DNA of 15,634 nucleotides from a bacterium. GTDB lineage: Bacteria > CG2-30-53-67 > CG2-30-70-394. The first letter of the stretch is position 1. Each line of letters starts with the position of its first letter. Of the stretch, positions 2,471 through 6,171 are shown piece after piece. Made by a program: the position numbers and the translations under genes. The notes beneath the pieces are model-generated. The model did not search any database. It saw only the letters and a list, made by a program, of their open reading frames with translations, and was not told the origin of the DNA. Location: the NCBI GenBank assembly GCA_024278555.1, contig JAJRSX010000106.1, forward strand, positions 1-15,634, given 5' to 3'.

Positions 2471-2700
2471 TGAATATCACCCTTTCCGTGGAGGATCGTC
2501 TCCTTGAGCGGGCCCGCGAGGTCGCCCGTCGCCAGGGGGTAAGCCTCAACCAGCTCGTCCGTCATTACCTGGAGACGGTGGCTGGGGAGGTCTCGGGGGA
2601 GGTGGCGGCGGAGACGCTTTTGCATCTCATGGAGGAGCACGGGGGGCACTCCGGCGGCCACCGTATCCCCCGTGAGGCGGCATATGAGGGGCGGGTTTGA
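2470..2700 (+). CDS. vapB: VapB-type antitoxin (ribbon-helix-helix-like)
   Basis: This 76-residue protein begins 'MNITLSVEDRLLERAREVAR' and continues 'RQGVSLNQLVRHYLETVAG'. A short N-terminal strand followed by two helices with a small-residue turn is the pattern of ribbon-helix-helix antitoxins. The C-terminal part (about 40-76) is likely the toxin-wrapping tail. The stop overlaps the PIN toxin start (TTGA at 2697-2700), so the genes are translationally coupled. I chose the ATG at 2470 over the in-frame GTG at 2464 because the expected transcription start falls at 2470. It should neutralise the downstream PIN ribonuclease and repress its own promoter. The family is clear; the exact antitoxin class is less so. 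Confidence 0.8.
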   Translation: MNITLSVEDRLLERAREVARRQGVSLNQLVRHYLETVAGEVSGEVAAETLLHLMEEHGGHSGGHRIPREAAYEGRV

Positions 2701-3113
2701 AGGAGCGCACCTTCTTCGATACCAACGTCTTGGTCTATGCCGATGACCTCGATGGTGGAGCGAAGCGGGAGGTCGCGAGGCAGCTTCTCCGCGATGCGCT
2801 CGTCTCGGCGACCGGCGTTGTCTCCACCCAGGTCTTGCAGGAGTTTTTCGTGGTTGCCACACGCAAACTGGGTGTGGATCCGGAGGTCGCCCGCCGGAAG
2901 GTGGCCCTCGTGGCGCAGATGGATCTGGTCCTGATCCGCCTCGATCTTATCCTCGGCGCCATCGACCTCCACCGCCTCCACCCCCTCTCCTTCTGGGATG
3001 CCCTGGTGGTGAAGAGCGCCGCGGCTGCCGGGTGTACGCGCATCCTTACCGAGGACCTGAACCACGGTGAAGTGATCGACGGCGTGCAGGTGGTGGACCC
3101 CTTCTGCGGATAG
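2697..3113 (+). CDS. vapC: VapC-type PIN-domain toxin
   Basis: This 138-residue protein is a PIN-domain ribonuclease. The acidic metal-binding residues are visible in order: D8 in 'FFDTNVLVYA', E49 in 'STQVLQEFFVVATRKL', D101 in 'SFWDALVVKSA', and an acidic pair in 'ILTEDLNHGE' near residue 119. PIN toxins of VapBC modules cleave specific RNAs, often tRNA or rRNA, in a Mg2+-dependent way. The target here cannot be predicted. The start is a TTG overlapping the antitoxin stop, with GAGGGG about 5 bases upstream as ribosome binding site. All catalytic positions are intact, so the toxin looks functional. Confidence 0.85.
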   Translation: MKERTFFDTNVLVYADDLDGGAKREVARQLLRDALVSATGVVSTQVLQEFFVVATRKLGVDPEVARRKVALVAQMDLVLIRLDLILGAIDLHRLHPLSFWDALVVKSAAAAGCTRILTEDLNHGEVIDGVQVVDPFCG

Positions 3114-3173
3114 TAACCGGTGCACTGCGCCGGCGCCGGTGCGTGGGACGCTCCGGCCGGGCATCATCGGCGG

Positions 3174-3890
3174 GTGCAGCCCCCCGACCTCTACCTCTCG
3201 ATCCCCCACCGGTGTGCCTACCTGGCCGGACGGGAGTCCACCGCGATCCTCGTGGATCCGGACCACCGGGTGACCACCGGGGAGTACGGTCGCCTCCTCG
3301 CCCACGGCTTCCGCCGCTCGGGCCCGAGGGTCTATCGGCCGCGGTGTGAGGGGTGCGCCGCCTGCGTGGCGGTGCGGGTGCGGGTGGCCGACTTTGTGGC
3401 CTCGCGCTCCCAGCGGCGGGTGTGGCGGCGCAACCAGGACCTCACGGTCGCCGCGATGGAGCCGCGCTTCGACGAGGAGCGGTACCGGCTGTATCGCCGC
3501 TACCAGCGCGATCAGCACGACGACGCCATGGAGGAGCCGGGGCCGCCGGTGGAGGCGCGCGCCGCCTTTTGCCGCTTTCTGGTGGAGAGTCCGGTGGCGA
3601 CGGTCCACCACGACTACCGCGATGGTGGTCGCCTGGTGGGGGTGGGGGTGGTGGACCGGCTGCCCGGTGCCCTCTCCTCGGTCTACTACTACTTCGACCC
3701 GGAGGCGGGCCGCCGGTCGCTGGGGACCTACTCGGTCCTGTGGGAGATCGACCTCTGCCGTCGCCTCGGGCTGCCGTACCACTATCTCGGTTACTGGATC
3801 CGCGACTGCCCGAAGATGGCGTACAAGGACCGCTTCCAGCCGTTGGAGTACCTGGTGGGCGGTGTGTGGCAGTCCACGCCGCCGGAATGA
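3174..3890 (+). CDS. bpt: Aspartate/glutamate leucyltransferase
   Basis: The protein is 238 residues from the GTG at 3174, the usual size for Bpt. The in-frame GTG at 3120 would add 18 residues that do not look conserved. Bpt transfers leucine from Leu-tRNA to proteins with N-terminal Asp or Glu, marking them for the ClpS/ClpAP N-degron pathway. Family signatures are dense: 'CAYLAGRESTAIL', 'GFRRSGPRVYRPRCEGCAAC' with the paired cysteines, 'RSQRRVWRRNQDL', 'RYQRDQHDDAM', 'YYYFDP', and the C-terminal 'LGYWIRDCPKMAYKDRFQPL'. The closely related Ate is the alternative, but proteobacterial members of this type are annotated as Bpt. No strong ribosome binding site is visible before either start. 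Confidence 0.85.
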   Translation: MQPPDLYLSIPHRCAYLAGRESTAILVDPDHRVTTGEYGRLLAHGFRRSGPRVYRPRCEGCAACVAVRVRVADFVASRSQRRVWRRNQDLTVAAMEPRFDEERYRLYRRYQRDQHDDAMEEPGPPVEARAAFCRFLVESPVATVHHDYRDGGRLVGVGVVDRLPGALSSVYYYFDPEAGRRSLGTYSVLWEIDLCRRLGLPYHYLGYWIRDCPKMAYKDRFQPLEYLVGGVWQSTPPE

Positions 3891-3939
3891 AGGCGGGGAG
3901 CTGCGGCGCCGTCTGGCGTCGTGGTAGCCTGCCGCGGTC

Positions 3940-4281
3940 ATGGGCAAAGAGATCGCGGCGGTCGCGCAGGGCCGGAAGGAGGAGCTGGTGGAGCTTCAGT
4001 CGGTGCTCACCGGGGTGGGGATCGCGTCGGAGATCGTCTGCCCGCCCGGCTCCGGCCACGGCTGAGGCACCAAGTTCTTGCTCGCGGTCGCGAGCGCGGA
4101 GGGGCCACGGGCGGCACAGGCGTTGTATGACGCCTGGTACGCCCGGGCGAGCGAGGCGGAGCGGCGCGCGGCAGAGAGTGTCATCGACCACAACGCCGCA
4201 GAGATCACCTGCCCGGCGTGCGGCACCACCTTCGCCACCGGCCCGAGCGAGTGCCCGGACTGCGGTTTGGGGCTCCTTTGA
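3940..4281 (+). CDS. Small zinc-ribbon protein with in-frame TGA; candidate selenoprotein
   Basis: Read through one TGA (4063-4065, codon 42), this frame gives a 113-residue protein. The part before the TGA begins 'MGKEIAAVAQGRKEELVELQ' and continues to 'IVCPPGSGHG'. The part after it begins 'GTKFLLAVASAEG'. The C-terminus is a zinc ribbon with CPAC and CPDC. The first half recalls DUF2007-like 'signal transducing' proteins, but I do not recognise the family firmly. The frame stays open and protein-like on both sides of the TGA. Cys34 would lie eight residues before the TGA-encoded residue. A compact hairpin with a GGTC loop follows the TGA at a distance suitable for a bacterial SECIS element, so selenocysteine insertion is plausible. 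The alternative is a nonsense mutation or sequencing error. The gene lies 49 bases after bpt and converges on the PIN gene at 4286-4699. Confidence 0.6.
4066..4100 (+). promoter_or_regulatory. Candidate bacterial SECIS element
   Basis: Directly after the in-frame TGA, GCTCGC (4080-4085) pairs perfectly with GCGAGC (4090-4095) around a GGTC loop (4086-4089). The stem can be extended outward through a U-G pair, one U/C mismatch, and pairs 4077-4098, 4076-4099 and 4075-4100. Twenty bases separate the TGA from the loop. From memory, the E. coli fdhF element has the same GGUC apical loop beginning 18 bases after its UGA, with an unpaired U in the stem. In GC-rich DNA such a stem could arise by chance, so the call depends on genome-wide Sec machinery and homologues. 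Confidence 0.5.
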
Positions 4282-4285
4282 AAGC

Positions 4286-4699
4286 TCAGCGTTGTACCTC
4301 GAAGGCCCGACTCCGGTCGCGGCCGAAACGGTAGACGGCGAAGTGGTCGTCGAGGGTGGCAACGCGGTGGATCCCGAGGCGCTCCATGACCGCGAAGCTG
4401 GTGCGATCGGTGATTGAAAAGTCCTGGTCAGGGAAGCGGGAGCCGATCGTCCAGGCGTTTTCGAGGTCGGCGATGGCGACCAGTTCGATCGTGGCGATGC
4501 CGCCACGCAACCCTTCCCAGAACCGTTCCGCTGCGTTTGGGTGGATTCGGTGGTGGAGCAGCAGCCACGTCTCGACCAAGACGTGGTCCGTGGTGACGAG
4601 CGGCTCTCCGGCGGAGAGGATCCTTTTAGCCCACGCGTTGTTGCGGTCACCGCTGTCGGCGGCGGCGTACCAGGCGGAGGTGTCGACGAAGAGGCTCAT
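4286..4699 (-). CDS. vapC: VapC-type PIN-domain toxin, second module
   Basis: This 137-residue PIN-domain protein is encoded leftward. Catalytic acids are visible: D6 in 'SLFVDTSAWYAAAD', E43 in 'DHVLVETWLLLHHR', D98 in 'DFSITDRTSFAVMERLGI', and an acidic pair in 'VATLDDHFAVYRFGRDRSRA'. The 'F.ITDRTSFAVM...I..VATLDDHF.' ending is typical of the VapC/COG5611-like group. It is expected to be a Mg2+-dependent ribonuclease held inactive by the upstream antitoxin. The ATG overlaps the antitoxin stop (ATGA at 4699-4696), so translation is coupled. Its 3' end is only 4 bases from that of the convergent candidate selenoprotein gene. It is not a close copy of the toxin at 2697-3113. Confidence 0.87.
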   Translation of the reverse strand: MSLFVDTSAWYAAADSGDRNNAWAKRILSAGEPLVTTDHVLVETWLLLHHRIHPNAAERFWEGLRGGIATIELVAIADLENAWTIGSRFPDQDFSITDRTSFAVMERLGIHRVATLDDHFAVYRFGRDRSRAFEVQR

Positions 4700-4959
4700 T
4701 GCCCCGTGGGTCGGCCCTGAGGCTGGTCGGCGGCGAGCGCCTCACCGAGGAGGCGGTCCTTGTCCCGGGCGATATCGGTGGAGCCTGAGTCACCGAGATC
4801 GAAGACCGCCTCGGGGGTCACCTGGTGGTGCGGTTCGCCGAGGTCGCGCTCGAGGAGTCGGCGGATATATTCGGCAAAGGAGATCCCGAGCTGGGCGGCG
4901 CGTGCGCGACCGCGGCGCTGGACTTCGGAGTCGAGGGAGATCTGGGTGCGTGTCATCAT
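4696..4959 (-). CDS. vapB: Ribbon-helix-helix antitoxin, second module
   Basis: This 87-residue protein starts 'MMTRTQISLDSEVQRRGRAR', followed by 'AAQLGISFAEYIRRLLERDL'. The strand 'TRTQISLD' and the two helices with an intervening G.S turn are a standard ribbon-helix-helix DNA-binding fold (about residues 3-45). The remainder, rich in Asp and Glu with 'VFDLGDSGSTDIARDKDRLL', should wrap the PIN toxin. Either of the two adjacent ATGs (4959 or 4956) could be the start. No ribosome binding site is seen. A -10-like TATGAT (4974-4969) lies so close that the transcript would have almost no leader. Confidence 0.82.
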   Translation of the reverse strand: MMTRTQISLDSEVQRRGRARAAQLGISFAEYIRRLLERDLGEPHHQVTPEAVFDLGDSGSTDIARDKDRLLGEALAADQPQGRPTGQ

Positions 4960-5208: not shown

Positions 5209-6171
5209 ATGTCCACCGAGCCCATCCCCGCCACCGTCGTCTCCGGCTTTCTCGGGAGCGGCAAGACCACCCTCCTGAACCGGCTGCTCAGCGCGTCGCA
5301 TGGGCGGCGGATCGCGGTGATCGTCAATGAGTTCGGTGAGGTGGGGATCGACGGGAGCCTGGTCGCCGGTGGGGAGCGGTTCGTGGAGCTGGACAACGGC
5401 TGCCTCTGCTGTGTCCTCAACGCCGATCTGGTGGAGCTCCTCGGGGAGCTCGGGCGGCGCGACGACATCGACCAACTGGTGGTGGAGACGACCGGCATCG
5501 CCGATCCCCTGCCGGTGGGGTGGGCCTTCTCGCGGCCGCAGCTCGAGGGTCGCTTCCGCCTCGATTGTCTGGTGACGGTGGCCGACTGTCTGAACCTGGA
5601 GCGGGCGGTGGAGGGGTCGCGCGAGGGCCGGTACCAGCTCGAGCGCGCCGACCTCCTCCTGCTGGCGAAGGGTGATCTGGTGGATGCGGAACGCCGGGCG
5701 GAGGTGGACGCGCGCCTGGCGGCGCTCAACGCGACCGCCCCCCGCTTTGCCGCCGACGACCCGGCCGCCCTCACCCTCTTGCTGGAGACGGAGCTCGACG
5801 GCGCCTTCGCCGGCGTGGCGGCCGCCGCCCCGCACCACCACCACGAACACGGCGCCGGGCACACCACCCACGAATTCGAGTCGGTGGCGGTGGAGGTGGG
5901 GGAGCGGGCCGCCGACCGTGACGAGCTGGAGGACCTCCTGGAGCAGCTACCGCCGACGGTCTACCGCTCCAAGGGGGTCGTGCGGGTGGCGGGGGAGGCG
6001 GAGTGGATGGTCTTCCACTCGGTGGCGAGCCGCCTGGAGATCGACTGGATGGCCGACCACGACGGCCCCGGCGCCCTGGTCTTCATCGGCAAGGGGCTCG
6101 ACCGGGCGGGGCTGGAGCGGGCGGTGGCGGCCCTCTTTGGAAAGGTGGCGAGGGTGGAGCCGGGCGGTTGA
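5209..6171 (+). CDS. COG0523/CobW-type G3E GTPase
   Basis: This 320-residue protein is a COG0523 (CobW/ZNG1-like) metal-handling GTPase. The Walker A is 'GFLGSGKTTLLN' (13-24), followed by 'VIVNEFGEVGIDGSLV' (switch region) and the metal-binding CxCC as 'GCLCC' (64-68). 'VVETTGIADP' is the Walker B-like segment. The guanine-recognition NKxD motif reads AKGD (153-156), an unusual Asn-to-Ala change. A His-rich stretch (H209-H212, then HEHGAGH) precedes the C-terminal CobW_C domain, which includes 'VYRSKGVVRVAGE'. Such proteins chaperone Zn, Co or Ni. Which metal is not decidable here, as no cobalamin genes or Zur site are seen. The ATG at 5209 puts the P-loop at the normal distance from the start. 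Confidence 0.85.
   Translation: MSTEPIPATVVSGFLGSGKTTLLNRLLSASHGRRIAVIVNEFGEVGIDGSLVAGGERFVELDNGCLCCVLNADLVELLGELGRRDDIDQLVVETTGIADPLPVGWAFSRPQLEGRFRLDCLVTVADCLNLERAVEGSREGRYQLERADLLLLAKGDLVDAERRAEVDARLAALNATAPRFAADDPAALTLLLETELDGAFAGVAAAAPHHHHEHGAGHTTHEFESVAVEVGERAADRDELEDLLEQLPPTVYRSKGVVRVAGEAEWMVFHSVASRLEIDWMADHDGPGALVFIGKGLDRAGLERAVAALFGKVARVEPGG

What the first reader, a model, noticed from the sequence alone, without database searches (positions are those of the whole stretch)
3940..4281. Candidate new selenoprotein: in-frame TGA followed by a SECIS-like hairpin in a zinc-ribbon protein
The sequence shows one frame from ATG 3940 to TGA 4281 interrupted only by TGA at 4063, with protein-like sequence on both sides. 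Directly after that TGA, GCTCGC/GCGAGC encloses a GGTC loop 20 bases downstream. Known bacterial SECIS elements sit at about this distance, and the E. coli fdhF element has a GGUC apical loop. The product would have Cys34, a TGA-encoded residue 42 and a C-terminal CPAC/CPDC zinc ribbon, suggesting a small redox or metal protein. I do not recognise it as a known selenoprotein family. A chance stem in GC-rich DNA plus a nonsense mutation remains possible.
Basis: partly seen in the sequence, partly recalled or inferred. Interest (0 to 1): 0.85.

Follow-up and report, generated by a model that had tools for sequence, protein, structure and literature searches.

The report
Selenocysteine zinc-ribbon protein, DG-like family
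This small gene almost certainly makes a real selenium-containing protein by reading an internal stop codon as selenocysteine; it is a divergent branch of a family first predicted in 2025, which current annotation models would probably cut short.

Summary
Confirmed and strengthened. Window 3940-4281 is one gene with an in-frame UGA at codon 42. A same-genus genome (69% identical) and 16 Myxococcota-type genomes carry homologues with TGA in exactly the same column; other homologues carry Cys there. All 18 TGA members have a bSECIS-type hairpin whose loop starts 20-21 nt after the UGA; none of six Cys members tested does. The host genome has tRNA-Sec (anticodon UCA), SelA, SelB and SelD, and SelD itself has a Sec-UGA. 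SelA occurs in 16 of 18 UGA genomes and 1 of 6 Cys genomes. It is not a wholly new family: the only significant NCBIfam relative is NF049953, 'zinc ribbon-containing (seleno)protein DG' (E 4e-19), predicted in 2025. Our protein is below that model's cut-off (69 vs 130 bits), lacks the N-terminal ribbon and lacks the DG 'GUxG' motif: a short, divergent sister subfamily. Best reading: a small thiol/selenol redox (or metal-handling) protein, with a Sec loop on a DUF2007/ferredoxin-like core plus a C-terminal zinc ribbon. The Sec assignment is well supported by comparison; the function is inferred.

The parts
3940..4281 (+). DG-like selenoprotein gene, 113 residues, Sec42 encoded by TGA 4063-4065
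4063..4065 (+). Sec-UGA codon; TGA in all 18 Sec-form members, Cys codon in Cys-form members
4079..4096 (+). bSECIS-type hairpin TGCTCGC-GGTC-GCGAGCG, loop 4086-4089, spacing 20 nt from the UGA
3952..4146 (+). DUF2007/ferredoxin-like domain (beta-alpha-beta-[Sec loop]-beta-alpha), residues about 5-69
   Evidence: AlphaFold2 model, pLDDT 75.6; weak DUF2007 match of Cys homologue L055; Foldseek/VIA ferredoxin-like matches
4039..4074 (+). Sec loop CPPGSGHGUGTK (residues 34-45) with Cys34 eight residues before Sec42
4210..4266 (+). C-terminal zinc ribbon CPACGTTFATGPSECPDCG (residues 91-109); both CxxC pairs kept throughout the aligned family
5239..6171 (+). CobW-type (COG0523-like) GTPase gene; directly follows the Sec gene in sister genome G001 (context only)

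Best explanation
The gene encodes a small, presumably cytosolic selenoprotein. SelB, bound to the hairpin 20 nt downstream, delivers Sec-tRNA-Sec(UCA) to UGA 42, so the ribosome makes the full 113-residue chain (supported by comparison and by the presence of the machinery, not by experiment). Sec42 sits in a glycine-rich loop between two strands of a DUF2007-like, ferredoxin-like domain (model). In 16 of 18 Sec members a Cys lies 5-9 residues before it, so the likely chemistry is a reversible selenenylsulfide (or a metal-selenolate) in that loop. The C-terminal CPxC-CPxC zinc ribbon probably stabilises the fold or docks a partner. It therefore probably works as a thiol/selenol redox or redox-switch protein, possibly tied to metal handling (CobW-type GTPase neighbour in this genus). 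Everything from 'redox active' onwards is inference. The confidence given is for the selenoprotein assignment; for the redox role I would give about 0.6.
For: Same-column TGA in 18 genomes; Cys in that column in L055, L065, L068, L069, L073 and L113, and by inspection in L058. Protein similarity and purifying selection continue after the UGA (downstream dN 0.22, dS 0.84). bSECIS criteria (review PMC13188914) met by 18/18 Sec members at spacing 20-21 nt and by 0/6 Cys members. The hairpin is kept in two clades by different stems (GCTCGC/GCGAGC and CCTCCT/AGGAGG). Host genome: tRNA-Sec 77 bits, anticodon tca; SelA 541 bits, SelB 326 bits, SelD 357 bits with its own CAGUASK Sec. SelA in 16/18 UGA genomes against 1/6 Cys genomes. 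The only significant NCBIfam match is a selenoprotein family.
Against: No protein or selenium data. The hairpin is partly forced by the peptides LLVxEE / LAVAS in GC-rich codons (synonymous-recoding P 0.02-0.47 per gene at spacing 19-22). One UGA genome (G256) shows no SelA and another (G253) only a fragment; whether these assemblies are incomplete was not checked. The Fisher values treat related sequences as independent. The upstream loop Cys is missing in two Sec members (L059, L066). Six same-phylum genomes have SelA but not the gene. Distant long-form relatives without any Cys at the site exist.
Confidence: 0.95

Rival explanations
1. Nonsense mutation or pseudogene: the TGA is a true stop in a decaying gene, with a chance stem in GC-rich DNA.
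For: The hairpin alone is only modestly unusual.
Against: The TGA is in the same column in 18 genomes, coding is conserved afterwards with dN below dS, and no other frame damage is seen.
Confidence: 0.02
2. UGA is read as another amino acid (suppression as Trp or Arg, or a changed code) rather than Sec.
For: Readthrough of UGA by near-cognate tRNAs is known in general (own knowledge).
Against: Homologues have Cys, not Trp or Arg, in that column; the genome has tRNA-Sec (tca) and SelA, SelB, SelD; the gene's own terminal codon is TGA.
Confidence: 0.02
3. It is a selenoprotein, but its role is metal handling (transfer of a metal by the Cys/Sec loop and ribbon, with the CobW-type GTPase) rather than thiol/selenol redox chemistry.
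For: CobW-type GTPase gene directly downstream in G001 and nearby in the window; weak HypA similarity of the ribbon half; CC-x-GG-C loops in Cys forms.
Against: The synteny is seen only within one genus; tblastn found no such neighbour in the fetched stretches of the Myxococcota-type loci; the HypA match is below cut-off and limited to the C-terminal half.
Confidence: 0.3

Closest known systems
NF049953 zinc ribbon-containing (seleno)protein DG ('hypothetical protein DG', Xiao and Zhang 2025, PMC12013277)
   Same: Nearly the whole of our protein (residues 3-111) aligns to profile 57-170 of 172 at E 3.9e-19; Sec and Cys forms; C-terminal zinc ribbon; SECIS-like structure reported for DG
   Different: 69 bits against a cut-off of 130; no N-terminal part (profile 1-56, a zinc ribbon in the long forms seen here); Sec context GUGT rather than GUxG; other lineages than Desulfosediminicola
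PF09413 DUF2007 (putative prokaryotic signal transducing protein)
   Same: Cys homologue L055 matches weakly (E 0.0022); predicted beta-alpha-beta-beta-alpha core
   Different: Below cut-off; our own protein gives no match; no Sec loop known to me in that family
Long-form double-ribbon proteins of the same phylum as G008 (L092-L117)
   Same: N- and C-terminal ribbons around the same kind of middle domain; match the DG model
   Different: No Cys or Sec at the site, no in-frame TGA, longer loop

Membership tests
Bacterial selenoprotein | In-frame UGA conserved and aligned with Cys in homologues | tested here: met
   18 TGA members; Cys in L055, L065, L068, L069, L073, L113, and L058 by inspection
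Bacterial selenoprotein | bSECIS hairpin downstream (loop 3-9 nt, stem 4-16 bp, G in the first two loop positions, spacing 16-37 nt, at most -7.5 kcal/mol) | tested here: met
   -10.5 kcal/mol, 7 bp, spacing 20, loop GGTC (criteria from PMC13188914); own script, not bSECISearch itself
Bacterial selenoprotein | tRNA-Sec, SelA, SelB, SelD in the genome | tested here: met
Bacterial selenoprotein | Selenium actually incorporated | not testable with these tools
   needs 75Se labelling or mass spectrometry
NF049953 (seleno)protein DG | Score over the curated cut-off of 130 bits | tested here: not met
   69.2 bits for P0001; 0 of 377 genomes of the phylum of G008 over the cut-off
NF049953 (seleno)protein DG | N-terminal part of the model (profile 1-56) | tested here: not met
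   match begins at profile 57
NF049953 (seleno)protein DG | GUxG motif listed for DG in the 2026 review | tested here: not met
   window has GUGT; others GUGx, SUSP, SUST, GUKT
NF049953 (seleno)protein DG | Significant homology over the middle and C-terminal domains | tested here: met
   E 3.9e-19, residues 3-111
PF09413 DUF2007 | Pfam gathering score | tested here: not met
   no match for P0001 at E up to 10; L055 18.6 bits against 25.7
PF09413 DUF2007 | Ferredoxin-like fold | tested here: inconclusive
   model pLDDT 75.6 from 3 sequences; best VIA Z 8.7 (57 residues, 1.3 A) to the PrgK first periplasmic domain, 6.0 to 2hfv

The most novel reading that the evidence does not exclude
The Sec loop on a DUF2007-type fold with a zinc ribbon is a selenoprotein family of its own, separate from DG proper, with chemistry not seen before (a selenolate redox or metal switch set in a ferredoxin-like or PII-like signalling fold).
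Probability: 0.25. Interest if true: 0.75.

Novelty: new variant of a known kind. Interest (0 to 1): 0.55.

Why it matters
Eighteen Sec-UGA genes of this subfamily were found here; those scored against the only existing model fall well below its cut-off, so automatic annotation would probably end them at the UGA (inference). The Sec and Cys forms, with the hairpin present in one and absent in the other, make a clean set for studying how Sec and Cys interchange. The predicted fold is not the thioredoxin fold that most characterised selenoproteins have (PMC13188914).

Tried and rejected
Rfam scan of 3900-4300 gave nothing above a gathering score. Viral contigs gave only zinc-ribbon local matches; plasmids gave none. 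The promoter/terminator scan of 3800-4400 gave nothing. The fold search gave no Foldseek match at E <= 0.001; the type III secretion ring, ACT and PII matches reflect a common ferredoxin-like arrangement and were not read as function. A literature search for selenoprotein plus zinc ribbon plus Myxococcota found no paper. HypA membership was rejected: below cut-off and limited to the C-terminal half. The hairpin alone was rejected as proof, since synonymous recoding reproduces it fairly often in the LLVxEE clade.

Full report
Observation. The window holds one frame, ATG 3940 to TGA 4279-4281, interrupted only by TGA 4063-4065. A hairpin TGCTCGC-GGTC-GCGAGCG follows at 4079-4096, its loop starting 20 nt after the UGA. 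The 56-nt fold by itself is not exceptional (z -0.93). A bSECIS-type hairpin of -10.5 kcal/mol or better at spacing 19-22 nt is seen at 0.6% of 2055 in-gene codon positions in the window, and in 4.1% of synonymous recodings of the same peptide.

Homologues. A search with the UGA read through gave one same-genus genome, G001 (69% identical, one TGA), and two MAG loci, L011 (45%) and L012 (39%), titled Deltaproteobacteria bacterium and Myxococcota bacterium. All have TGA at the same codon. A profile of the four, run on 377 genomes of the phylum of G008 (the genome of L011), added 14 TGA members at that column: L053, L054, L056, L057, L059-L064, L066, L067, L072, L074. In the joint alignments the column holds Cys in L055, L065, L068, L069, L073 and in L113. 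L058 is a Cys form by inspection (GESCGAGCSCK), but its loop is aligned differently, so it is the weakest of them. More distant long forms with two ribbons (L092-L117, except L113 and the misread L115) have neither Cys nor Sec at the site and a longer loop; I read them as relatives without the redox loop.

Coding after the UGA. Between window and G001 the part after the UGA has dN 0.22 and dS 0.84, with 30 third-position differences against 15 and 12 at the first and second. The 18-nt hairpin is identical in the two. Among the six closest members the stem varies only at two pairs, and every variant still pairs; the other 12 use a different stem shifted by one base, with the GGT or GTC loop in the same place.

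SECIS and machinery. By the constraints summarised in PMC13188914, 18/18 Sec members qualify at spacing 20-21 nt, whereas six Cys members (L055, L058, L065, L068, L069, L073) have no hairpin of -7.5 kcal/mol or better (Fisher p 7e-6, sequences not independent). The host has tRNA-Sec with anticodon tca, SelB, SelA and a SelD that itself reads CAGUASK. SelA is over its cut-off in 16 of 18 UGA genomes and 1 of 6 Cys genomes (p 0.0027). G256 has no SelA match and G253 only residues 1-89; the tables give no completeness for these. Six other genomes of the window's own phylum have SelA but not this gene.

Known or not. The only significant NCBIfam match is NF049953, 'zinc ribbon-containing (seleno)protein DG'. 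'Hypothetical protein DG' was reported in 2025 from two Desulfosediminicola genomes, with TGA and Cys homologues elsewhere (PMC12013277), and the 2026 catalogue lists it under NF049953 with motif GUxG (PMC13188914). Our protein scores 69 bits against 130, begins at profile position 57 and has GUGT. None of 377 genomes of the phylum of G008 passes the cut-off; the best is a long Cys form at 116.5 bits. I therefore call it a sister subfamily of DG and do not file it as a DG member. I could not see the published DG alignment, so whether its TGA homologues include any of ours is unknown.

Structure and mechanism. An AlphaFold2 model from three sequences (pLDDT 75.6, pTM 0.59) shows beta-alpha-beta-beta-alpha followed by a ribbon, with Sec42 in the loop between strands 30-33 and 46-51. 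The core resembles ferredoxin-like domains, and one Cys homologue matches DUF2007 weakly. A Cys lies 5-9 residues before Sec in 16 of 18 Sec members, and not in L059 and L066. A selenenylsulfide in the loop is the likeliest chemistry; this is inference. In G001 the gene is followed at once by a CobW-type GTPase gene, 75% identical to window 5239-6171; in the window a PIN/RHH pair lies between. That hints at metal handling but rests on one genus.

Verdict. A real Sec gene by comparative evidence; a divergent variant of a recently predicted family; its biochemical role is open.

Noticed in passing
window 4286-4956 (-): A PIN-domain toxin gene (PF01850) and a ribbon-helix-helix antitoxin-like gene (PF22513, below cut-off) sit between the Sec gene and the CobW-type GTPase gene; in G001 those two genes are adjacent, so the pair looks inserted.
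   Followed up: partly
window 2697-3890 (+): A second PIN-domain gene and an arginyl-tRNA-protein transferase gene lie between the methyltransferase-like gene (1556-2428) and the Sec gene; tblastn did not find them in the 9.3-kb G001 stretch, where the outer genes are close together.
   Followed up: partly
window 3905-3940, and the starts of many homologues: Many members have a TAnnnT-like box roughly 10-15 nt before the start codon and no clear Shine-Dalgarno sequence, as if the transcripts were leaderless; not tested against chance.
   Followed up: no
G002-G007: Six other genomes of the window's small phylum have SelA but lack this gene.
   Followed up: no
L066, C-terminus of the Sec protein: This Sec member has an extra Cys-rich tail (CGTGGCGPKGCG) and no Cys in the loop before Sec.
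   Followed up: no
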